Assembly: GCA_017882705.1 (NCBI GenBank)
Contig: JADGOZ010000069.1
Coordinates: 1 to 40,427 of the forward strand
Length of the DNA stretch: 40,427 bases
Direction: 5' to 3'
DNA from: Candidatus Nanopelagicales bacterium
GTDB lineage: Bacteria > Actinomycetota > Actinomycetes > S36-B12 > CAIYMF01
In this document: piece by piece, positions 6,309 through 15,721 of the stretch
How positions within the stretch are numbered: position 1 is the stretch's first letter
Layout: each line of letters opens with the position of its first letter
The notes under the pieces: model-generated
Databases searched by the model: none
The model's input: the letters and a program-made list of their open reading frames with translations, nothing else
Told to the model about the DNA's origin: nothing
Made by a program: the position numbers and the translations under genes

Positions 6309-7115
6309 GTGCCCCAGGACCCGCTCGCGCCCCTCGTCGACCTGCCCGGAGTCGCGGACGCGGTCCAGCGTGCGCGGTCGGCGGTCGACGGCGTGCTGTG
6401 GGACCGGGCCGTCCGGGCTCGGGTGGCCGAGGTCGTGGCCGTGTCGAGGCTGCGCGGCGGATGGGCATCGGCCGCGATCGACGGCGCCGAGGTGCGGCCG
6501 GACGCCCTCGTGTCGGGGGACGCGCTCGACGGCTCGCCGATCGGTCGCGTGGTCGCGGCATCGCTCGCGCTGCAGGCGGAGATCCCGGCGCAGGTCGATG
6601 CGTTCGGCCGCTCGCCGCTTCAGGTGCTCTCGCGGCTGCACAGCGTCGTGTCGGTCGGCTTCGTCGACGGCGAGCTGCGCGGTCGCGTGCGGACCGAGGC
6701 GGCTCCTGCGGCCGACGACCCGCTACGACTCGGCGGGCTCCCCGCGGCCGGTGACGCCGCGCGTCGGATAACTGCGCTCGCGGGCATCCTCACGCGCCCG
6801 ACGGTCGCTCCGGCGCTCGTCGTCGCGGCCGTCGCGCACGCCGAGGTCGCGGTCACGCGACCCTTCGCGTGGGGCTCCGGGCTCGTCGCGCGGTCGGTGA
6901 CGAGGCTCGTCCTCGCAGCGCGCGGTGTGGATCCCGACGGCGTCACGGTGCCCGAGGCGGGGCTCTTCGCTGCCGGGAGGTCGGCGTACGCCGAGGCCCT
7001 GCGGGCCTACGCGGGCGGGGAGCCGGACGGGGTCGCGCGGTGGCTCGTGCTGCACGCCGAGACCGTGCGCGTGGGTGCCGAAGAGTCGAGACGGATCCTC
7101 GCCGACCTGCCCTGA
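6309..7115 (+). CDS. Fic-fold protein with degenerate active site (often annotated 'oxidoreductase')
   Basis: This 268-residue soluble protein shows two Fic landmarks. The N-terminal segment ASAAIDGAEV (residues 53-62) resembles the SSxIEG inhibitory helix of Fic proteins. RPFAWGSGLVAR (184-195) aligns with the catalytic HPFxxGNGRxxR loop, but the catalytic His is Arg, Asn is Ser and the first Arg is Leu. Fic enzymes transfer AMP or related groups onto proteins; this one probably cannot, so it may be a structural or regulatory relative. The GTG start is fixed by TAGCGT 6 nt upstream. From memory, the homologous gene sits beside the HAD gene and a 6S-like RNA in Streptomyces and mycobacteria. 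The molecular function is unknown. Confidence 0.72.
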   Translation: MPQDPLAPLVDLPGVADAVQRARSAVDGVLWDRAVRARVAEVVAVSRLRGGWASAAIDGAEVRPDALVSGDALDGSPIGRVVAASLALQAEIPAQVDAFGRSPLQVLSRLHSVVSVGFVDGELRGRVRTEAAPAADDPLRLGGLPAAGDAARRITALAGILTRPTVAPALVVAAVAHAEVAVTRPFAWGSGLVARSVTRLVLAARGVDPDGVTVPEAGLFAAGRSAYAEALRAYAGGEPDGVARWLVLHAETVRVGAEESRRILADLP

Positions 7116-7129
7116 CGCAAGCCGATCGG

Positions 7130-7440
7130 ACAGGAAGGCGCGGAAACGGTAACGCCGGAAAGTCAAGAGGCGAGAGGACTTCCGTCTGCGGTCCGACCGG
7201 AGTACACAAGGAAGAGAGCTCCCCTCGGGGAGGTGGCACTCACGGGAAGGGCGACCGAGAGAGCATCACACGAACAGAGCACGGGAAACCCCGGGCACCC
7301 ACGCGGCGGACCACCCTCGTAACGGGAGTCACGGACGGGGCAGCTTCGCGCCCCCGGCCGGACGTATCGCGCCAGCGCATGATCGCCCGGTAGCTCGTGC
7401 CCGCAGACGGGGTCCCGCTCGCGGGGCCCCGTCCGTGCGT
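7130..7440 (+). ncRNA. Putative structured RNA, Ms1/scr3559 (6S-like) position
   Basis: The 363 bp between the Fic-like gene and the first array gene hold no plausible protein gene. From about 7131 to 7300 the plus strand is about 28% A but only 8% T, unlike the neighbouring coding DNA; a surplus of A is common in folded RNAs with unpaired purines. Nested pairing can be drawn: 7137-7142 with 7368-7373, a hairpin at 7156-7184, 7191-7200 with 7354-7363 (one mismatch), and a hairpin at 7219-7232. A strong hairpin at 7406-7433 would end it at about 310 nt, near the size of mycobacterial Ms1. The Fic-like gene/HAD neighbourhood is where I recall Ms1 and scr3559. Strand rests on base skew only; the ends are approximate and no promoter was found. 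Confidence 0.5.
7406..7433. terminator. Strong hairpin between the RNA locus and the membrane protein array
   Basis: GACGGGGTCCCGC and GCGGGGCCCCGTC pair over 13 positions (one G-T wobble), closing on a very short loop. It lies 46 nt past the stop of the minus-strand gene at 7479 and at the right end of the putative plus-strand RNA, so it can serve both directions. There is no T tract. Confidence 0.65.
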
Positions 7441-7478
7441 CGCGGGGCCGATCCGTCGAGCGGCCGTGGGCGGTCGGT

Positions 7479-8978
7479 CTACGCGGTCGTCCAGCCCATC
7501 CCGGAGAAGTCGCCCGGCTGCAGACCGGGGCATGCGACGCGGTAGGCGTCGAGCAGGTGCTGGTCGGCGAGGCTGACGCGCACCGGCCAGCTGCGCGACC
7601 CGCTCGTCAGCGTGAGCGCCACGGTCGGCGGCGGCATCACCGAGCTGCATGCGGCCGCCCAGTCGACGGCCAGTCGGGCGTGGCTGCCTCGGACGTCGGA
7701 CGACACCGTGAGGATCGTGGGGACGGCGCCGTTGCGGATGTCCTCAGGCGCCGTCGCGTCGGCGATCTGCACGCGCTGCGCGCTGGTGGCGACGTCGACC
7801 TGCATCCGGAGCCCGACCATCGTCGGGTCGCCGCCCGGGGGGAGCTCCCGGACGACGGCGTCCGGCGAGTACCCCGCGAGCCGCATGGTGACGGTGGCGG
7901 GCGGGATGCCCGCGCACATCTGGGCGAGCAGGTGGGTCACGGTCGCCTGCTGGGCGGGGGAGAACGGCACGAGGAGCGCCCCGCCGTAGCTGGCGTCGGC
8001 GGGACCGACGGTCGCGAAGAGATTGAGGCCGGCACGCTGCGGCTGCGTGCGGTAGCCCCCGGGGTCGGGCACGTAGGCGTCGTCGAGGCGCGGGTGTGCG
8101 CAGTCCGTCACGCGGATCCGCACCGGCACGACGATGTCGGTGCCGTCGGGAGCGAGCACGAGGTTGCTCGCGATGTGGACCGACGTGCCCGGTCCCGGTG
8201 TGGGCGCCACCATGAGGTCGTGGCCGAAGCCGTTGTGCACCGTGGCCTCGACGGTGAGGACGCGCGGCGCGGGGTCGCCGGTGATGCGCGTGGCCGTGGC
8301 CGGGACGAGCTCGGTCAGCTTCTGCTGCACGCACGGCCCGACGATGCTGTCGACCCAGCTCCCGCCGTCGGCGAGGGGGAGGTCGACGAGCCCTGTCGTG
8401 GTGCGCCCGTAGGCGTCGGTCTGCTCGATGCGCAGCCGGAAGTCCGCCGGCGTGGCCGCCGTCGCGTCACCCTGGTCGCAGCCGACGACGGCGGCGACGT
8501 CCGCGACGGTCGCCCCGTCCTGCGCAGCCGTGGCGGAGTGCGCGTGCGCGGTGGACGCCCGGATGCCCGGTCCCACCACGCTGAGGATGCGCACCGTGTC
8601 GCCGGAGTGCGCCGGGACCGCCCGGTAGGTCGAGACGAGAAGGCCGGTGCCGTCGTTCGTGACGCCGGTGCCGGACCCGTCCGACACCCAGTTGGCGAGA
8701 GTGACCGAGACGGTCGTGTCCTGCGCCGGCGGGCGGCTCCGGACGTACGCAGTCGTGGCGGTGCCGGCGACGAGGACGACCGCGGCGGTCGCGGCGACGG
8801 CCGCGCGGTGCCGACGTAGCCACGGGGTCACGCCGGTGGACTGCAGGCGCTCGGTCCAGGTGACCGCGTCGTTGCCCTCGAGCAGGTCCTCGGGCGGCTG
8901 CACGTCGAGGGAGGAGGCGTGGTCGATCACCGACCCGAGCTCGTCGAGCTCGAGCCGTCCGTCGCCGACGTCCCCCAC
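7479..8978 (-). CDS. Six-cysteine single-pass membrane protein, array copy A
   Basis: I do not recognise this family. The 499-residue protein has a short cytoplasmic N-terminus containing GDGRLELDELGSVIDHASSL (residues 5-24) and STGVTPWLRRHR (47-58), one membrane helix (about 60-78), and a large ectodomain rich in Val, Thr, Ala and Pro that looks all-beta. Its six cysteines (167, 216, 293, 355, 444, 483) are spaced 49, 77, 62, 89 and 39 apart, almost exactly as in copy B, which suggests three disulfides outside the cell. It is the last gene of a minus-strand series beginning with the HAD phosphatase. The GTG start at 8978 has no Shine-Dalgarno sequence but has TACGCT 6 nt upstream. The function is unknown; a surface or envelope role is an inference. 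Confidence 0.85.
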   Translation of the reverse strand: MGDVGDGRLELDELGSVIDHASSLDVQPPEDLLEGNDAVTWTERLQSTGVTPWLRRHRAAVAATAAVVLVAGTATTAYVRSRPPAQDTTVSVTLANWVSDGSGTGVTNDGTGLLVSTYRAVPAHSGDTVRILSVVGPGIRASTAHAHSATAAQDGATVADVAAVVGCDQGDATAATPADFRLRIEQTDAYGRTTTGLVDLPLADGGSWVDSIVGPCVQQKLTELVPATATRITGDPAPRVLTVEATVHNGFGHDLMVAPTPGPGTSVHIASNLVLAPDGTDIVVPVRIRVTDCAHPRLDDAYVPDPGGYRTQPQRAGLNLFATVGPADASYGGALLVPFSPAQQATVTHLLAQMCAGIPPATVTMRLAGYSPDAVVRELPPGGDPTMVGLRMQVDVATSAQRVQIADATAPEDIRNGAVPTILTVSSDVRGSHARLAVDWAAACSSVMPPPTVALTLTSGSRSWPVRVSLADQHLLDAYRVACPGLQPGDFSGMGWTTA

Positions 8979-8984
8979 GCGCGC

Positions 8985-8990
8985 AGCGTA
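8985..8990 (-). promoter_or_regulatory. -10 box of array copy A (leaderless)
   Basis: TACGCT on the minus strand lies exactly 6 nt before the GTG at 8978. The same hexamer at the same distance precedes copy B, so each copy seems to carry its own promoter in addition to any read-through from upstream. Confidence 0.55.
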
Positions 8991-9021
8991 CGTGCCGGTG
9001 CGCGCCCCTGCGCCGCCGATG

Positions 9022-10518
9022 TCAGCCGGTCGCCCAGCCGAACTGGGCGAGGTCGCCGGGCACCGTGCCCGCCGGGCAGGCGGCGGTGTAGGCGCGGGCG
9101 AGCTGCGCCTGCCCGAGGTCGACGCGGTAGGGGTACGTCGTGCCGTTCGCGTTCACGACGAGCCAGGCCAGCGGCGGTCCGACGACCGAGCTGCACTGCG
9201 CCGCCCAGTCGACGCTGACGACGACGCGACCGTGGCTGACGTCGGTCTTCACGGTCGAGACCGTCGCCGGGCCTCCGGCGACGTAGGCGCCGAACGGGAA
9301 CGAGCCGTCGGAGAGCACCACGCGCGATCCCGGCGTACGGATCTCGACCTGCGCGCGCAGGACCACGCCGTCCTGCGGAGTGGCGAAGCCGTACGCCGCT
9401 CCGGCTGCAGCCGGCTCCGGCACCGCCGACAGGACGCGCGCCGTCACCCCGGGCGCCCCGGCGCACATCTGGCGCTCGCCGGCAGCGATCGCCGCCCGCT
9501 GCAGGGGCGTCCACGTGACGAAGATCCCCGCGCTGGTCTGACCGCCGGTGGACGGCGTGGTGAACAAGCTGAGGTCGTTGGGCACGGTCCGACCGGGTCC
9601 GATGCCGTTGCCGACGTACGCCGGAGGTCCCACGACCTGAGGCGTGCAGTCGTCGAGCTGGATCGCGACGTGCTGGACGGCGCTCTCCCCGGACAGGAGG
9701 TCGGTCTGCTCGACCGTCGGTTCGACGGCGGTCGACGTGCTGCTGACGCCCTCGATCCGGAGGTTCTGCTCGAGGCCGTTGTGCAACGTGATGTCGGCGT
9801 GGACGACGCGCCGCGCGACGTCGGTGCGCAGCGCGACCTCGGTGACGGTGACGGACTCGCCCACCCGGGTCTGGAAGCAGTTCTGCGCGGATGTGTCGGC
9901 GAGCTGCGCGGCGACCGGGCTGGGCAGGGTCAGCTCGCCGACCGTCACGCGGCCGTAGCCGTCGGTGCGCCGCGCGCGGAGGTGGTAGTCCGCGAAGGTC
10001 GCGGTGAAGGAATGTGGGTCGTCGCACCCGGGCACGAGGAACACGTCGACGACTCCAGCAGCGGTCGCGCTCAGGTCCGGCACCGCGGTGCTCGCGCGGA
10101 TGCCAGGTCCGGCGATGCCGAGGACATCGATCGTGTCGCTGTCGTTGCCCTTCTGGATCCTCAGGGCGAGGGAGAGGCTCCCGTCGTAGGTGGTCCCTGG
10201 CACCTGCTGCGCCGTGCCGTCGGCCGTGGCGTCGGACACCTCCGCGGCGATCGCCGGATCGAGGGGAGGCGGCTGGCTCCGCGCCCACCCGATGCCGAGG
10301 ACGGCCACCGCGACAGCGACCGCCGCGGTGATCCCGAGCGCGAGCGCGTGGCGGCCCACCCACGGGGCCACGCCGCTGGACTCGAGGCGCTCGCGCAGGG
10401 TCGGCCGCTCGTCACCCGTCAGCACGTCCTCGGGCGCGGTCGGACCCAGCGAGGAGGCGTGGTCGATGACCGAGCCGAGCTCGTCGAGCTCGAGCCTGCC
10501 GTCGCCGCCGTCCCCCAT
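9022..10518 (-). CDS. Six-cysteine single-pass membrane protein, array copy B
   Basis: This 498-residue paralogue of the downstream gene is not a family I can name. The cytoplasmic N-terminus is nearly identical to copy A (GDGRLELDELGSVIDHASSL at residues 5-24), followed by SSGVAPWVGRH (47-57), a membrane helix at about 60-78, and a Cys-containing ectodomain. Cysteines 165, 214, 291, 352, 442 and 481 align one-to-one with copy A, and motifs around them are shared (GPGIRAST, VDWAA-CSS, and AACP against VACP). The rest of the ectodomain has diverged strongly. It lies 43 bp upstream of copy A. The ATG at 10518 lacks a Shine-Dalgarno sequence and has TACGCT 6 nt upstream. The conserved inner tail with a variable outer part suggests a shared intracellular partner and different external ligands (inference). 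Confidence 0.85.
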   Translation of the reverse strand: MGDGGDGRLELDELGSVIDHASSLGPTAPEDVLTGDERPTLRERLESSGVAPWVGRHALALGITAAVAVAVAVLGIGWARSQPPPLDPAIAAEVSDATADGTAQQVPGTTYDGSLSLALRIQKGNDSDTIDVLGIAGPGIRASTAVPDLSATAAGVVDVFLVPGCDDPHSFTATFADYHLRARRTDGYGRVTVGELTLPSPVAAQLADTSAQNCFQTRVGESVTVTEVALRTDVARRVVHADITLHNGLEQNLRIEGVSSTSTAVEPTVEQTDLLSGESAVQHVAIQLDDCTPQVVGPPAYVGNGIGPGRTVPNDLSLFTTPSTGGQTSAGIFVTWTPLQRAAIAAGERQMCAGAPGVTARVLSAVPEPAAAGAAYGFATPQDGVVLRAQVEIRTPGSRVVLSDGSFPFGAYVAGGPATVSTVKTDVSHGRVVVSVDWAAQCSSVVGPPLAWLVVNANGTTYPYRVDLGQAQLARAYTAACPAGTVPGDLAQFGWATG

Positions 10519-10524
10519 GCGGGC

Positions 10525-10530
10525 AGCGTA
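10525..10530 (-). promoter_or_regulatory. -10 box of array copy B (leaderless)
   Basis: TACGCT on the minus strand lies exactly 6 nt before the ATG at 10518, with sequence context nearly the same as at copy A. Confidence 0.55.
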
Positions 10531-10566
10531 GGTCGCCGCCCGCCCCGCGGTCCCGCCCGGTGCGGA

Positions 10567-11324
10567 TCAGGCGGCCGGCGTCGCCCCGGGCGTCACGGCG
10601 CCACAGCCAGGCACCTGCACGACGGACGCCGGCGCGCACGCCGCGTCCACCGCGGCGCGCAGCCGGGCCGCGTCGAGCGGCAGCTCGAAGGGATGGACGA
10701 AGCGGTCCGCCGTCGTGACCCGTACGGCCATGGACGTCGGGATCCCGCGGCCGCGGTCGTCGCAGGTGGTCCCGGTGAACGTCACGGGCAGCCGCCCGGC
10801 CCCGCCGTCGAGCTGTGCGGGGGCGAGCACCCAGCGCACGCCCGGCACGAGCGAGTCGGTCGTCGCGAGAGTGGAGTCCGCGCCGGCCGGCGGCCCGGTG
10901 AAGTGCTCGCGCCCGAGCGTGACGCCGATACCGGACGTGCGGACGTCGTAGGTTCCCGTGACGAGCCGGCTCCCGTCGATGCTGCGCGATCCCGCCACAT
11001 CGACCAGCCGCGCCGAGATGGTCGGCGCTGCGACGCACGCCGTCGAGAGCCGGTCGGCCAGCTGCGCGACGGTCCAGGGCAGGGCATAGGACGCGAGCGT
11101 CCACTCGGACCCGAGCCCGAGCCGCACCGTCACGCCCGACATCGCTGGGGGTACGACGTATCCCGGGCCGAACACGGGTCCCGGCAGCTCGGTCAGGGCA
11201 GTCGGTCTCGGCGTTACCGCGCAGTCGTGGACGAGCAGTCGGGTCGCGACCGTGCCGTCGAGCGGCGTGTGCGCAGGCTCGTCGGTGGCGTGAGCTCGAG
11301 CCGGCCCTCGTCGGGGTCGGTCAT
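10567..11324 (-). pseudogene. Decayed copy of the six-cysteine membrane protein (copy C)
   Basis: An ATG at 11324 opens with MTDPDEGRLEL, matching the family N-terminus, but the frame then runs into unrelated residues and a TAA after 36 codons. In another frame, the C-terminal part of the family resumes just before the third cysteine (LLVHDCAVTPRP) and continues to the stop at 10567, keeping counterparts of cysteines three to six (TACVAAP, TTCDDRG, AACAPASV). The membrane helix and roughly 270 codons are gone, and the two pieces are out of frame. A shorter frame from an ATG at 11175 gives 202 residues but would lack any export signal. The simplest reading is an internal deletion plus frameshift. 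Its position between intact copies B and D, in the same direction, shows the array once had four members. Confidence 0.72.
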
Positions 11325-11390
11325 GCGCCCGTCACGCGACGACGGTAAGCGCCGCGAGGCCGTCCGGCACCAGGGAAGGCAGGTCCGGTC

Positions 11391-12893
11391 TCAGGGGGCC
11401 AGGGGGTCCAGCGACGGTCCGCACATCCTGCGCAGGGCATCGCGCAGGGGAGCGCCGGCGAGGGCCAGGGAGTAGGGGCGGCGCTCGGCGACGGAGCCCG
11501 CGCGCACGAGGTTGACCGAGAGGCGGGGGAGCCCGGACGCCAGCAGGTCGGCGCACTTCGGCAGCTCCCAGGTGGCGTCCAGCTCGCCGGTTCCCCCGGT
11601 CAGGTGGACCGGGCTCGCCAGCGGGGTGAGCGTGCCTGCGGCGGTGCGCAGCCCTTGGCCGACCTCGATCAGCGCGGCGTCCCGCGCGCGGACGACCAGC
11701 GTCAGCTCGAGGCTGCCGGCAGTGGTCTCGCCGCCACCGCTGTGCACGATCGCCCGGGTCACGGTGGCCGAGGGCGCCGGACCGGAGCAGACGTCGGCGA
11801 ACGCCTTGTCGACGCGGGCCAGCAGCGCGGTGCCGACCGGCACCGAGAACGTGTTCCCCACCGTGTCCGCGGCGTTCGGCTCGGTGTCCTCGGCTGCGAA
11901 CGACGTGCGCAGCCGCAGCCCGCCGGACAGGGCCCCAGCCGGGCTCGCGCAGTCCTGCAGCCACACCCGAGCGCGCAGCGACGAGCTGCCACCGGCCGCC
12001 AGATCGGTCGGCGCGTGCATGTTGACCAGCCATGGCAGAGCCCGGGTGGAGACGCGCAGTCCCTGCCACGACCGGACCGCTGCGTTCGTGAGCACGACGT
12101 CGAGGTCGGCCGCCGCCACCCCCGCCACCGGCGTGATCCGCATCGACGACACGTCGAGCTCGCGGTCGGCGACGGCCTGCAGGCAGGTGGAACGGACGAG
12201 CTGCGCGAGCCGCTGCGCGCCCACGAGGCGCACCGGGTCGCTGCGGGTCTCGCCCTCCGGGGCGATGCGTCGCACGACCACGCCGAAGTCGGCCGGCTCC
12301 GCGGCGATCGCCGCCGTGGCAGACCCGGGCGACGTGCAGTCGAGCGCGGCCGAGACGGTCGCGACGGAGTCGGTGAGCGACGTGTCGACGAGGGAGACGC
12401 GCCCGGAACGGGGGGCCGACAGGCCCGGTCCGGTGAGCTGCACCAGCTCCACCGCGACCCCGGTCCGTTCCACGGACGCCACGGCGACGGTGAGCGTGAG
12501 CCCGACCACGTCGCCGTCCTCGGCGTCGACCGTCACCTGCTCCTGGTCGGATCCGCTCGTCTTCACGAGCAGGAGCGGGGAGTCCGGCAGCGGCACGGGT
12601 CGCGAGACCCACCACCAGCCGGCGGAGCCGAGGACGATCGTGGCGAGCACGCCGACCGCGAGGACGACGGTGCGGTGCCGGCGTACGAACGGGGCGACGC
12701 CCGTCGACTCGAGGAAGCGACGGACGTGCTCGGACAGCAGCGAGCGCCCGGGGTCGGCCCCGATGACGTCGAGGTCGAGCGGGGCGTCGAGGCGGTCGAG
12801 GTCGAGCCGGCCGTCCAGGCCCGGGCCGGCGGGGTCCGTCGTGGCTCCGGGGCGCGACGAGGCGGTGCTGCCGCCACGCTGCGCGTCGGGCAC
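11391..12893 (-). CDS. Six-cysteine single-pass membrane protein, array copy D
   Basis: This is the most divergent intact member, 500 residues. The N-terminus is longer and Pro/Asp-rich, with LDGRLDLDRL at residues 26-35 matching the inner motif of copies A and B, then STGVAPFVRRHR (63-74) and a membrane helix (about 75-96). Six ectodomain cysteines (186, 237, 315, 369, 447, 491) keep the order and rough spacing of A and B (51, 78, 54, 78, 44). The GTG at 12893 follows GAGAGGA and lies 17 nt past the HAD stop, so unlike A and B it is probably co-translated with the phosphatase. Family membership is clear from the cysteine pattern and the juxtamembrane motif; function is unknown. Confidence 0.85.
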   Translation of the reverse strand: MPDAQRGGSTASSRPGATTDPAGPGLDGRLDLDRLDAPLDLDVIGADPGRSLLSEHVRRFLESTGVAPFVRRHRTVVLAVGVLATIVLGSAGWWWVSRPVPLPDSPLLLVKTSGSDQEQVTVDAEDGDVVGLTLTVAVASVERTGVAVELVQLTGPGLSAPRSGRVSLVDTSLTDSVATVSAALDCTSPGSATAAIAAEPADFGVVVRRIAPEGETRSDPVRLVGAQRLAQLVRSTCLQAVADRELDVSSMRITPVAGVAAADLDVVLTNAAVRSWQGLRVSTRALPWLVNMHAPTDLAAGGSSSLRARVWLQDCASPAGALSGGLRLRTSFAAEDTEPNAADTVGNTFSVPVGTALLARVDKAFADVCSGPAPSATVTRAIVHSGGGETTAGSLELTLVVRARDAALIEVGQGLRTAAGTLTPLASPVHLTGGTGELDATWELPKCADLLASGLPRLSVNLVRAGSVAERRPYSLALAGAPLRDALRRMCGPSLDPLAP

Positions 12894-12910: not shown

Positions 12911-13714
12911 TCAGGCGCTGCCCCGGCGACGGCTGGCGTACCACGCGAGGCCGAGCGCGACCGTCGCCGCCGCGCCCATGAGCGCGTTGCGGCGGTTGTC
13001 GGGCGTGTTGACGACCGCGATGCGCTGGCGGACGGTCGGCATCGCGACCGGCCGGGCGAAGTCGACGACCGGCCAGTCGCGCTCGACCGCGATCTTGCGC
13101 AGCGGGGCGTCGGGGTTGACGCAGACAGGGTGCCCCACGATCTCGAGCATCGGTAGGTCCGTCATCGAGTCGGTGTAGGCGTAGCAGTCGGCGAGGTCGT
13201 AGCCGTTCTCCTCGGCGAGGGCGCGCATGGCCTCCGCCTTCCCCTCGCCGTAGGCGTAGAAGAGGATCTCGCCGGTGTACTTCCCGTCGACGATCTCGAC
13301 CTGGGTGCCGATGGCGCGGTCGACGCCGAGGCGCTCGCCGATCGGCTCGACCACCTCGGTGCCCGACGAGCTGATGATGATGACGTCGCGGCCGGCCTCC
13401 TTGTGCTCCTCGATCAGGTCGACCGCCTCCTCGTAGACGAACGGGTCGACGATCTCGTCGAGGGTCTCGGACACGATCTGCCGCACGGTGTCGACGTCCC
13501 AGCCCTTCACGAGCTCGGACATGTAGTGGCGCATCGTCTCCATCTGGTCGTGGTCGGCACCGGAGGAGAGGTACGTGAACTGTGCGTAGGCGCTCTTGAG
13601 CACGTCCGCGCGCCCGAGGAGGCCGCCCTTGTAGAAGGGGCGCGCGAAGGCGAGGGAGCTCGACTTGGCCAGGATCGTCTTGTCGAGGTCGAAGAAGGCG
13701 GCGCTGCGGGTCAT
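12911..13714 (-). CDS. HAD-IB family phosphatase with C-terminal membrane helix (SerB-like)
   Basis: This 267-residue HAD hydrolase has motif I FFDLDKTIL with nucleophile D9 and acid/base D11, a motif II region IIISSSGTEVV, and a late motif YTDSMTDLPML. A single hydrophobic helix near the C-terminus (LMGAAATVALGLAWYA) followed by SRRRGSA suggests it is held at the membrane facing the cytoplasm. The substrate is unknown; the subfamily includes phosphoserine phosphatase-like enzymes. It is the first gene of the minus-strand series that includes the six-cysteine proteins. The ATG at 13714 is fixed by TACCAT 6 nt upstream. From memory, the homologues are Rv3661 and SCO3558, the latter linked to morphological differentiation. 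Confidence 0.93.
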   Translation of the reverse strand: MTRSAAFFDLDKTILAKSSSLAFARPFYKGGLLGRADVLKSAYAQFTYLSSGADHDQMETMRHYMSELVKGWDVDTVRQIVSETLDEIVDPFVYEEAVDLIEEHKEAGRDVIIISSSGTEVVEPIGERLGVDRAIGTQVEIVDGKYTGEILFYAYGEGKAEAMRALAEENGYDLADCYAYTDSMTDLPMLEIVGHPVCVNPDAPLRKIAVERDWPVVDFARPVAMPTVRQRIAVVNTPDNRRNALMGAAATVALGLAWYASRRRGSA

Positions 13715-13796: not shown

Positions 13797-14405
13797 ATGA
13801 CGCCGAACGAGCCTGTCCCCACCGTCCGGCTCGACGCCCAGTCGCTGCGCGGCCTCGCGCACCCGCTCCGGGTGCGGCTGCTCGGCCTGCTGCGGATGGA
13901 CGGCCCGGCCACCGCGAGCGGCCTGGCGGCCGTCGTGGGCGAGTCGAGCGGGGTCACCAGCTACCACCTGCGCCAGCTCGCGGCGTACGGCTTCGTCGTC
14001 GAGGACGACGCGCCGCACGCCTCGAAGAAGGAGCGCTGGTGGAAGGCCGCGCACCGCACCACCGTCCTCGAGACGCTGCCCGACTCCGACCCCGGCACGA
14101 CGCTGCTCGTCGACGAGTACTTCCGGTCGATCGCGTGGGCCTACTCCGACCGTGTCCTGCGCTTCGCCGACGGTCTCGCGTCCACCCGCGACGAGCTCGG
14201 CGGCGAGTGGGGCGCGGTCGCCGACCTCTCCGACTGGATGCTCGAGCTGACGCCCGAGGAGGCCGACGAGGTCGGTCGGCGACTGCACGCGGTGGTGGAC
14301 GAGTACCGGATGACCGACCCCGCGCGTCCTCGAGCGGCGGGCACCGAGCGGGTCGTCGTGCAGCTGCAGGTGATGCCCACCGTGACGCGAGGAGCCACGT
14401 CGTGA
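13797..14405 (+). CDS. ArsR-type winged-helix repressor
   Basis: This 202-residue protein has an N-terminal winged helix (about residues 14-85: LRGLAHPLRVRLLGLL, ATASGLAAVVG, GVTSYHLRQLAAYGFV, then a KKERWWK wing) and a C-terminal helical region of about 100 residues. No cysteine metal-binding motif is present, so a small organic ligand is more likely than a metal. The ATG at 13797 is preferred over an in-frame ATG 15 nt earlier because TACAGT is placed 6 nt upstream of it. It overlaps the MFS gene by 4 bp (GTGA) and has a double dyad in its promoter. It probably represses itself and the exporter until a substrate of the exporter binds. Identity of that ligand is unknown. Confidence 0.92.
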   Translation: MTPNEPVPTVRLDAQSLRGLAHPLRVRLLGLLRMDGPATASGLAAVVGESSGVTSYHLRQLAAYGFVVEDDAPHASKKERWWKAAHRTTVLETLPDSDPGTTLLVDEYFRSIAWAYSDRVLRFADGLASTRDELGGEWGAVADLSDWMLELTPEEADEVGRRLHAVVDEYRMTDPARPRAAGTERVVVQLQVMPTVTRGATS

Positions 14406-15721
14406 CCGAGTCCCCCACCGCGACGAGGACCGTGACAGCGACGTCACCGCGCCGTCGTCGCGGCCTGTGGGCCTTCCTCGCCTCCGAGGTCGTGTCGGTC
14501 ACCGGCACACGCATGTCGATGGTGGTCGTCCCGTGGTTCGTCCTCATCACCACGGGCAGCGCCGCACTGACCGGCCTCGTCGCGTTCGCCGAGACGCTGC
14601 CCTACGTCGTGGTGCTGGGCCTCGGTGGTCCGCTCGTGGACCGCTGGGGTGCGCGGCGCGTCGCCGTCGGCTCCGACCTCGCGGCCGCGGTGCTGGTCGG
14701 CGCCGTCCCGCTGCTGCACCTGACGGGTCGGCTGCCGCTCGGCGTGCTCGTCGCCCTGGTCGCGCTCGCGGGCGCCGTGCGCGGGCTCGGCTCGGCCACG
14801 TACGTCCTCATGCCCGGGCTCGCGGAGCAGGCGCGGATGCCGATCGAGCGGGCGACCGGATTGCACGACGGGATGAACCGCGTGGCGGGCATGGTCGGGC
14901 TGCCGCTGGCCGGCGTGCTCATGACGGTGTGGTCCGCTCCCGCGGTGCTGCTCATCGACGCCGGGTCGTTCCTCGTGGCCGGTCTGCTGATCGCGGTGTT
15001 CGTCGACCGTTCCGTGCAGCCGCGCGCGGACGAGACCGCCGAACACGAGGAGAAGGTCGGCTACGTCGCCGAGCTGCGCGAGGGCGTCGCGTTCCTGCGC
15101 CGCGACCGGCTGCTCGTGGCGATCGCCCTGATGGTGCTCGTGACGAACCTGCTCGACCAGGCCTACAGCGTGGTGCTCGTGCCGGTGTGGGTGCGCGACG
15201 AGCTCGGGTCGCCGCTCGGCCTCGGGCTCATCGGCGGCGTGTTCGGGATCGGCGCGGTCACCGGGTCGGCGCTGTTCGCCTGGCTCGGTCCGCGCCTGCC
15301 CCGGCGGCGGTCGTTCGCGTGGGGCTTCCTCGTCGCGGGCGCGCCGCGCTTCGCGGTGCTCGCCCTGGCCGTGACTCTCCCGCCCGTCCTCGCGGTGTCG
15401 CTGCTCGCCGGTCTCGGCGTCGGGGCGATCAACCCGGCGCTCAGCTCGACGGAGTACGAGCGGGTGCCGCGCCACCTCCAGGCCCGGGTGCTCGGCGCGC
15501 TCGGCGCGCTGGCATGGGCCGGCATCCCGCTCGGTGGTCTCGTCGGTGGCCTCGCCGTCGACACCCTCGGCCTCACCGCGTCGGCGGTCGTGCTCGGGGC
15601 GGTCTACCTCGTGGCGACGCTCTCGCCCTTCGTGATGCCGGTCTGGCGCGAGATGGCCCGGCCTCCGGCCGCGGGCACCGAGCCGGAGGGGGCCGAGGTC
15701 CTCGAGCCGGTCCGCGCCTGA
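14402..15721 (+). CDS. MFS transporter, probable drug/metabolite exporter
   Basis: This 439-residue integral membrane protein of the major facilitator superfamily has about 12 hydrophobic helices. GPLVDRWGARRVAVGSD (about residues 76-92) is the loop 2-3 signature of the family. The domain organisation, with a charged central loop (DETAEHEEKVGYVAELREG) and a helix carrying FGIGAVTGSALFAWLGPRL, is like MFS_3-type exporters such as enterobactin exporter relatives. It is translationally coupled to the preceding repressor, which suggests inducible efflux. Substrate cannot be read from sequence. In the relatives I remember, this two-gene unit is not part of the locus, so it may be an insertion between the HAD and CpaE-like genes. 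Confidence 0.92.
   Translation: MTESPTATRTVTATSPRRRRGLWAFLASEVVSVTGTRMSMVVVPWFVLITTGSAALTGLVAFAETLPYVVVLGLGGPLVDRWGARRVAVGSDLAAAVLVGAVPLLHLTGRLPLGVLVALVALAGAVRGLGSATYVLMPGLAEQARMPIERATGLHDGMNRVAGMVGLPLAGVLMTVWSAPAVLLIDAGSFLVAGLLIAVFVDRSVQPRADETAEHEEKVGYVAELREGVAFLRRDRLLVAIALMVLVTNLLDQAYSVVLVPVWVRDELGSPLGLGLIGGVFGIGAVTGSALFAWLGPRLPRRRSFAWGFLVAGAPRFAVLALAVTLPPVLAVSLLAGLGVGAINPALSSTEYERVPRHLQARVLGALGALAWAGIPLGGLVGGLAVDTLGLTASAVVLGAVYLVATLSPFVMPVWREMARPPAAGTEPEGAEVLEPVRA

What the first reader, a model, noticed from the sequence alone, without database searches (positions are those of the whole stretch)
7479..12893. Tandem array of an unrecognised six-cysteine single-pass membrane protein family
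Three intact genes of 498-500 residues and one decayed copy lie in a row on the minus strand. All three have a short cytoplasmic tail with a DGRLxLDxL motif, the juxtamembrane motif S(S/T)GV(A/T)P(W/F), one membrane helix, and an ectodomain in which exactly six cysteines align (spacing A 49/77/62/89/39, B 49/77/61/90/39, D 51/78/54/78/44). Between cysteines the ectodomains have diverged strongly while the inner tails of A and B are nearly identical. That pattern suggests a constant intracellular partner with variable external recognition. They follow a membrane-anchored HAD phosphatase gene and precede a putative 6S-like RNA. I know of no described family with this layout. The link between these parts is inference.
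Basis: partly seen in the sequence, partly recalled or inferred. Interest (0 to 1): 0.8.

Follow-up and report, generated by a model that had tools for sequence, protein, structure and literature searches.

The report
Expanded unnamed actinobacterial surface-protein gene array
An uncultured actinobacterium carries a row of fast-changing, probably disulfide-pinned membrane proteins of a family with no name in the libraries searched; they share a short inner tail motif, lie beside a conserved phosphatase gene and a probable RNA-polymerase-binding RNA, and have shorter relatives that also stand in rows in another lineage.

Summary
In detail: three intact genes (D, B, A) and one decayed copy (C) lie at 7479-12893, with the stated cysteine spacings and motifs. 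No match reaches a printed cut-off in Pfam or NCBIfam; PHROGs gave nothing. The family is wider than one strain. In the window's genus the arrays run D, C, A/B after the HAD gene. Six cysteine columns are invariant in the 24 full-length members collected first. The ectodomain is a threefold repeat with one cysteine pair each. One- and two-domain relatives stand at or near the same HAD-Fic locus in other genera, families and orders of the class; in one distant genus two-domain relatives form tandem arrays at a second locus. In the window's genus a short tail motif is kept while ectodomains fall to 25-39% identity; in the second genus the same contrast is much weaker once motif preselection is removed. 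The neighbouring gap probably encodes the 6S-like RNA Ms1, published as flanked by HAD and Fic genes. Best reading: N-in/C-out surface proteins of tandem disulfide-pinned domains, for adhesion or recognition.

The parts
11391..12893 (-). D-type member, 500 aa from a GTG 17 nt after the HAD stop codon, with GAGAGGAC between
   Evidence: D clade 100/100 support; my gene caller chose an earlier start, 12944
10567..11324 (-). decayed C-type copy: start with tail-like words at 11324 (frame ends after 36 residues), central part missing, C-terminal part kept (10657-11256 homologous)
11342..11347 (-). TACCGT (TANNNT) upstream of the decayed C copy, as upstream of C genes in relatives
9022..10518 (-). 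B, an A/B-type member, 498 aa, six cysteines
10525..10530 (-). TACGCT 6 nt before the ATG of B, leaderless-promoter-like
7479..8978 (-). A, an A/B-type member, 499 aa, six cysteines; tail residues 1-58, membrane segment about 59-79, then three repeats of about 130 residues with one cysteine pair each (167/216, 293/355, 444/483)
8985..8990 (-). TACGCT 6 nt before the GTG of A, leaderless-promoter-like
12911..13714 (-). HAD-IB hydrolase with C-terminal hydrophobic stretch, conserved neighbour of the array
   Evidence: TIGR01490 206.1 bits, cut-off 98.3
7116..7478 (+). candidate Ms1 (6S-like) RNA region; core motif 7296-7330 on the + strand
   Evidence: no Rfam match
6309..7115 (+). conserved flanking gene, called Fic-like only from published Ms1 synteny; no Pfam match

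Best explanation
The array encodes membrane-anchored surface proteins: a short cytoplasmic N-terminal tail, one membrane helix, and an extracytoplasmic stack of three tandem domains, probably beta-sandwich (Ig-like), each pinned by one disulfide. They are kin of two-domain, four-cysteine proteins found at or near the conserved HAD - Ms1 RNA - Fic-like locus in other Actinomycetes. In this lineage the three-domain form multiplied into subfamilies D, C and A/B; D follows HAD closely, and C and A/B carry their own promoter-like elements. The tail docks a constant intracellular or membrane partner while the fast-diverging ectodomains bind varied outside ligands (neighbour cells, polymers, phage-exposed surface). 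Shown by sequence: array, invariant cysteines, repeat, homology to the two-domain family, locus conservation, tails better kept than ectodomains in the window's genus. Inferred: topology, disulfides, Ig-like fold, promoter use, tail partner, binding role.
For: Six cysteine columns invariant in 24/24. Repeats d1/d2/d3 match each other by hhalign with scores 23.3, 27.2, 32.5 against shuffled maxima 12.6, 12.6, 13.7 (25 shuffles each). Four-cysteine against six-cysteine family: probability 98.3, E 2.1e-14, four cysteines co-aligned with domains 1-2. N-terminal hydrophobic segment in 24 of 24. 25 of 30 genomes whose member neighbourhood was read have a member at or near the HAD-Fic locus. A/B types: 11-residue tail motif 0.84-0.95, whole tail 0.51-0.56, ectodomain 0.25-0.28. 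Orthologous ectodomains average 0.32-0.40 where HAD is 82-89% identical between the window and five array-bearing genomes and the Fic-like gene averages 0.73. A/B genes with TANNNT 5-9 nt before the start: 6 of 9 against 38 of 257 control genes, p = 8.5e-4; the test was thought of after seeing A and B.
Against: No structure could be predicted. PDB profile hits are not significant (best E 0.1), so Ig-like is a guess from pattern. In 4 of 24 members a second segment inside the ectodomain also passes the hydropathy threshold, and in one of these (G010, 10663) it scores above the N-terminal one. The tail motif was picked because it is conserved. The 0.84-0.88 motif identity used a pattern that demands its core; unfiltered, genus g75 tails are 0.43-0.45 against 0.32-0.40 for ectodomains, and the best-kept windows lie outside the tail. 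Fast divergence can be relaxed constraint: D ectodomain pN 0.30, pS 0.44; A/B 0.51 and 0.48, near saturation. Four of 11 same-genus genomes show no member; G005 and G006, the two of them whose locus was read, have HAD next to the Fic-like gene and no array. No ligand, partner or phenotype is known.
Confidence: 0.4

Rival explanations
1. Envelope structural or scaffold proteins, in which the ectodomain changes fast because only its fold is constrained and nothing outside is recognised.
For: The invariant and nearly invariant ectodomain positions of the 24-member alignment are all cysteine, proline or glycine; D orthologues look weakly constrained; some same-genus species lack the array; unfiltered g75 tails are hardly better kept than ectodomains.
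Against: Tails are better kept than ectodomains in the window's genus. The homologue at the HAD locus of genus g75 is 77-83% identical in the three genome pairs where array copies best-match at 41-68%, so the fold can be held more tightly.
Confidence: 0.33
2. Envelope sensors: the ectodomains read envelope state and the tail signals to a cytoplasmic regulator, possibly with the HAD phosphatase, in the manner of membrane-bound anti-sigma factors.
For: Close linkage to HAD and the Ms1-like RNA; weak NCBIfam matches to an anti-sigma model around the membrane segment of two relatives (E 5e-4 and 0.024; 20 and 14.6 bits, cut-off 100).
Against: Tails are short; no Pfam match for seven tails; HAD and tad occur without the array in G005 and G006.
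Confidence: 0.13
3. Accessory proteins of the neighbouring Tad pilus.
For: ssd-tad genes stand near HAD in many of the loci read that reach that far.
Against: tad genes run the other way, are present without the array in G005 and G006, and the six second-locus arrays read in genus g75 have no tad genes in the stretch read.
Confidence: 0.07

Closest known systems
Ms1 RNA locus of Actinobacteria (HAD-IB hydrolase - Ms1 - oxidoreductase/Fic), PMC9130861
   Same: Same flanking genes; conserved gap between array end and Fic-like gene in the array-bearing genomes compared
   Different: The passages seen mention no membrane-protein array; 'nanopelagic' occurs 0 times in its main text
   Same: Homologous by profile comparison, N-terminal membrane segment, same locus, tandem arrays in g75
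   Different: Two domains and four cysteines; tail words PLDLGVVG rather than DGRLELD (by eye, D-type tails carry both kinds)
DUF1707/SHOCT-like proteins (PF08044)
   Same: EGRL-type N-terminal motif, a recalled resemblance only; a DUF1707 gene lies near the HAD locus in L138
   Different: No Pfam match of seven tails at E up to 10
Ig-like domains (cadherin, archaeal flagellin)
   Same: Among the best, non-significant PDB profile hits (E 0.1)
   Different: No significant sequence relation

Membership tests
Four-/six-cysteine HAD-locus membrane family (defined here) | profile homology across domains 1-2 with cysteines co-aligned | tested here: met
Four-/six-cysteine HAD-locus membrane family (defined here) | single N-terminal membrane segment after a short tail | tested here: met
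   hydropathy only; N-terminal segment in 24 of 24, but a second passing segment in 4 of 24
Four-/six-cysteine HAD-locus membrane family (defined here) | location at or near the HAD-Fic locus | tested here: met
   25 of 30 genomes read
Any curated Pfam or NCBIfam family | score above the curated cut-off | tested here: not met
   four Pfam models match 1 of 24 members each at E 0.008-0.084, cut-offs not printed
DUF1707/SHOCT | match to PF08044 | tested here: not met
   seven tails
Ig-like fold | beta-sandwich fold | not testable with these tools
   structure prediction switched off; PDB sequence hits not significant
Ms1 RNA (for 7116-7478) | synteny with HAD-IB and Fic/oxidoreductase genes | tested here: met
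   here the array stands between HAD and the RNA region
Ms1 RNA (for 7116-7478) | secondary structure of the Ms1/6S type and RNAP-core binding | tested here: inconclusive
   consensus fold has both-sided changes in 11 of 45 pairs, no control; folding energy of the window region no better than shuffles on either strand; binding not testable

The most novel reading that the evidence does not exclude
A bacterial receptor-array system: paralogous surface proteins share one short cytoplasmic docking motif and vary a stack of disulfide-pinned domains for recognition of cells, phages or polymers. It arose twice by tandem expansion from a gene family of the HAD-Ms1 locus, which would link surface recognition to a locus otherwise known for RNA-polymerase control.
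Probability: 0.12. Interest if true: 0.82.

Novelty: new variant of a known kind. Interest (0 to 1): 0.52.

Why it matters
It outlines an undescribed extracytoplasmic domain family that recurs at a conserved actinobacterial locus and stands in arrays in at least two lineages. Genus g75 offers a built-in comparison: a slower copy at the HAD locus against faster array copies in the same genomes. Whether bacteria keep a constant tail under varied ectodomains becomes testable. It also gives a candidate Ms1 RNA in this order.

Tried and rejected
Rejected: array as a strain oddity (homologues in genus, family, order and class). Rejected: defence proteins (PADLOC: one model, 1 of 24 members, E 0.0058, taken as chance). 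Rejected: DUF1707-type tail. Weak profile hits not counted as members: L069 (SufS-like, recalled label), L070, L071, and most hits at E 1e-6 to 1e-3, which lie mostly around the membrane segment. Led nowhere: first genome-contig scan; PDB profile searches; alignment of the RNA gap with all strands in array sense, replaced by a strand-corrected one (the stretches were also trimmed, so the two identities are not a clean comparison). Phylum search with the four-cysteine profile: 0 of 149, but no genome known to match is among the rows listed, so it says nothing. Gene calls in relatives come from a simple codon-usage caller of my own; some starts are wrong and HAD was missed in L031 and L034, so one search was used for HAD positions there. 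G004 and G008 (fetched) and L039 gave no gene calls in the output; L039 was read, G004 and G008 were not read. Rows dropped: five fragments from the 24-member set; 4 of 25 genus-g75 proteins (two whose called frame lacks the motif, one fragment, one motif variant); G282 was put back.
Full report
OBSERVATION. No Pfam or NCBIfam model matches the window proteins near its cut-off. Of 24 family members, four Pfam models match one member each at E 0.008-0.084. Four proteins gave nothing in PHROGs.

WHERE IT IS FROM. The window is one contig of an assembly with 194 contigs, 3.56 Mb, 90.89% complete. The order name rests on the first label.

DISTRIBUTION. With the three-row profile 9 of 119 related genomes match. 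With the 24-row profile 11 of 17 genomes of the family match, 7 of 11 in the window's own genus, and 22 of 166 in the order, many of the weak ones probably chance. With a 33-row profile 41 of 394 class genomes match at E up to 0.001; outside the order I count G229, G184, G222 and G192 as strong (E 4e-51 to 3e-15), and most of the rest are short weak hits near the membrane segment. The four-cysteine profile finds 15 of 148 class genomes.

ARRAY ANATOMY. In the genus, HAD is followed by a D-type gene, then a C-type, then A/B-type genes. This is seen in G002, G009 and G010 (three A/B genes), and in part in G007 (only a remnant after C), G003 (on two contigs, each with a homologous gene at the break; the one tested is DUF222-HNH), G001 (contig end) and the window (C decayed, two A/B genes). 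D (100/100) and C (100/99) are supported clades; A/B is what is left, poorly resolved and mixed with the G014 genes. Four of 11 same-genus genomes show no member; in G005 and G006, the two of them read, HAD stands beside the Fic-like gene.

DOMAINS. Six cysteine columns are invariant in 24 of 24 full-length members; two of them have a seventh. Two further long members found later, in G011 and on contig C124 of the window's genome, have six and seven. The ectodomain is a threefold repeat of about 130 residues with one cysteine pair each: hhalign scores 23.3, 27.2 and 32.5, against maxima of 12.6, 12.6 and 13.7 in 25 column shuffles each and 10.4-12.5 for reversed repeats (first seen). One-domain forms of 212 aa follow HAD in G013 and G016. 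Shorter forms of 290-312 aa sit at the same place in family f6. The four-cysteine form is homologous to domains 1-2 of the six-cysteine family (probability 98.3, E 2.1e-14 over 204 columns, four cysteines in register).

LOCUS. I read the neighbourhood of a member in 30 genomes. In 25 it lies at or near the HAD-Fic locus: in 23 next to or between HAD or Ssd and the Fic-like gene, or against one of them near a contig end; in G262 and G183 on the far side of the Fic-like gene. In five (G131, G229, G184, G222, G226) it lies elsewhere. For G272, G300 and G204 only the second-locus array was fetched. The Ms1 paper (PMC9130861; passages, start of abstract) gives HAD-IB hydrolase and oxidoreductase/Fic as flanks of this RNA, which binds the RNA polymerase core. 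That M. tuberculosis MTS2823 lies between Rv3661 and Rv3662c is recalled; one search is a listing only. The label Fic-like for window 6309-7115 comes from this synteny; Pfam gives no match.

MS1-LIKE RNA. The gap 7116-7478 has no Rfam match. Turned to one strand, eight gaps align at 55% mean column identity. A core pattern is found in 7 of 17 family genomes with at most 2 mismatches, none with the backward control pattern; G003 and G010 carry it with a one-base gap. These nine are the genomes with three-domain genes at the locus; the pattern was not found in the other eight. Relatedness is not corrected for. In the window and G011 the core lies on the strand opposite to the array, in the seven others on the array strand. 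Folding of the window region is no better than shuffles on either strand; the consensus fold was not controlled.

PROMOTERS. A TANNNT box ending 5-9 nt before the start codon is found in 6 of 9 A/B, 2 of 6 C, 0 of 6 D and 0 of 3 G014 genes, against 38 of 257 other called genes; Fisher p 8.5e-4 for A/B and 0.026 for all. The test was formed after seeing A and B. By eye TACCGTCG stands upstream of five of six C genes and of the decayed C. That this spacing marks leaderless transcripts in actinobacteria is recalled. D follows HAD after 17 nt containing GAGAGGAC. The array probably has several transcripts.

TAIL AND ECTODOMAIN. Mean identities of an 11-residue motif, the whole tail and the ectodomain: A/B same-genome 0.95, 0.56, 0.28 (4 pairs); A/B cross-genome 0.84, 0.51, 0.25 (32); D 0.79, 0.53, 0.35 (15); C 0.74, 0.51, 0.39 (15); motif and ectodomain between types 0.57 and 0.20 (207). 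The motif was chosen for being conserved, so the whole-tail figures are the fairer ones. Orthologous ectodomains average 0.37 (D), 0.40 (C) and 0.32 (A, best match), the Fic-like gene 0.73 (6 pairs). HAD is 80-89% identical to the window's in seven same-genus genomes and 64% in G004 and G008.

SECOND LINEAGE. In genus g75 (family f25, unnamed) seven of the eight genomes with hits carry two to four tandem four-cysteine genes: six arrays were read, G236 is known by coordinates only; G282 showed none. In the arrays read neighbouring genes mostly overlap by 4 nt. The motif of type PLDLGVVG was found in 17 of 20 array copies, with identity 0.88 within and 0.84 between genomes, against 0.32 and 0.39 for ectodomains (16 and 120 pairs), but the search pattern demanded its core. 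Without preselection, whole tails of 18 array copies are 0.43 and 0.45 identical, ectodomains 0.32 and 0.40, membrane segment plus linker 0.63 and 0.61, and the best-kept eight-column windows lie at the cysteines and just behind the membrane segment. So the constant-tail contrast is clear in the window's genus and slight here. The HAD-locus copy of g75 is slower: 0.77-0.83 in the three genome pairs where array copies best-match at 0.41-0.68, and 0.63-0.64 in three pairs with G282. D-type tails contain PLDLDVIG, or EPLDLDVVG in G010, so the tail words may be ancestral; this is by eye.

INTERPRETATION. Tail, basic juxtamembrane stretch and helix point to N-in/C-out topology (recalled positive-inside rule; hydropathy, where 4 of 24 members show a second passing segment). 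Conserved cysteine pairs on the outside point to disulfides. Better-kept tails under diverging ectodomains would fit a constant inner partner with varied outer contacts, but relaxed constraint on a robust fold gives much the same. D ectodomains show pN 0.30 and pS 0.44 (window against G007); A against B 0.51 and 0.48, near saturation; positive selection is not shown.

NOVELTY. Three searches of the paper library with terms of this kind found no description (listings only). I call it a new variant of a known kind: an undescribed domain family within the broad class of rapidly diverging, membrane-anchored surface proteins.

Noticed in passing
window 7116-7478: Candidate Ms1 RNA; its core motif is on the strand opposite to the array here and in G011, but on the array strand in seven relatives, which implies local inversion or strand change.
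   Followed up: partly
window 13797-15721: An ArsR-type regulator and an MFS transporter gene stand between HAD and the ssd-tad operon; no homologue was found by BLAST among the called genes of the relatives' loci compared.
   Followed up: partly
L062:8617-9942 (G000 contig C124) and L109:9644-10864: Family members beside an epimerase-like gene and a long shared gene block, in the window's genome and in a genome of another family: a second family locus.
   Followed up: partly
L003/L040 (G000 contig C148, 8763-9209): Truncated family fragment beside a phosphoglycerate-mutase-like gene (label by eye) in the window's own genome.
   Followed up: partly
L032, L033: In G003 the array is split between two contigs with homologous genes at the break, one of them tested as DUF222-HNH, as if a repeated gene had broken it.
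   Followed up: partly
L066:5529-6512: In family f6 genus g29 a FUSC-type (PF13515) membrane protein gene stands between HAD and the shorter family genes.
   Followed up: no
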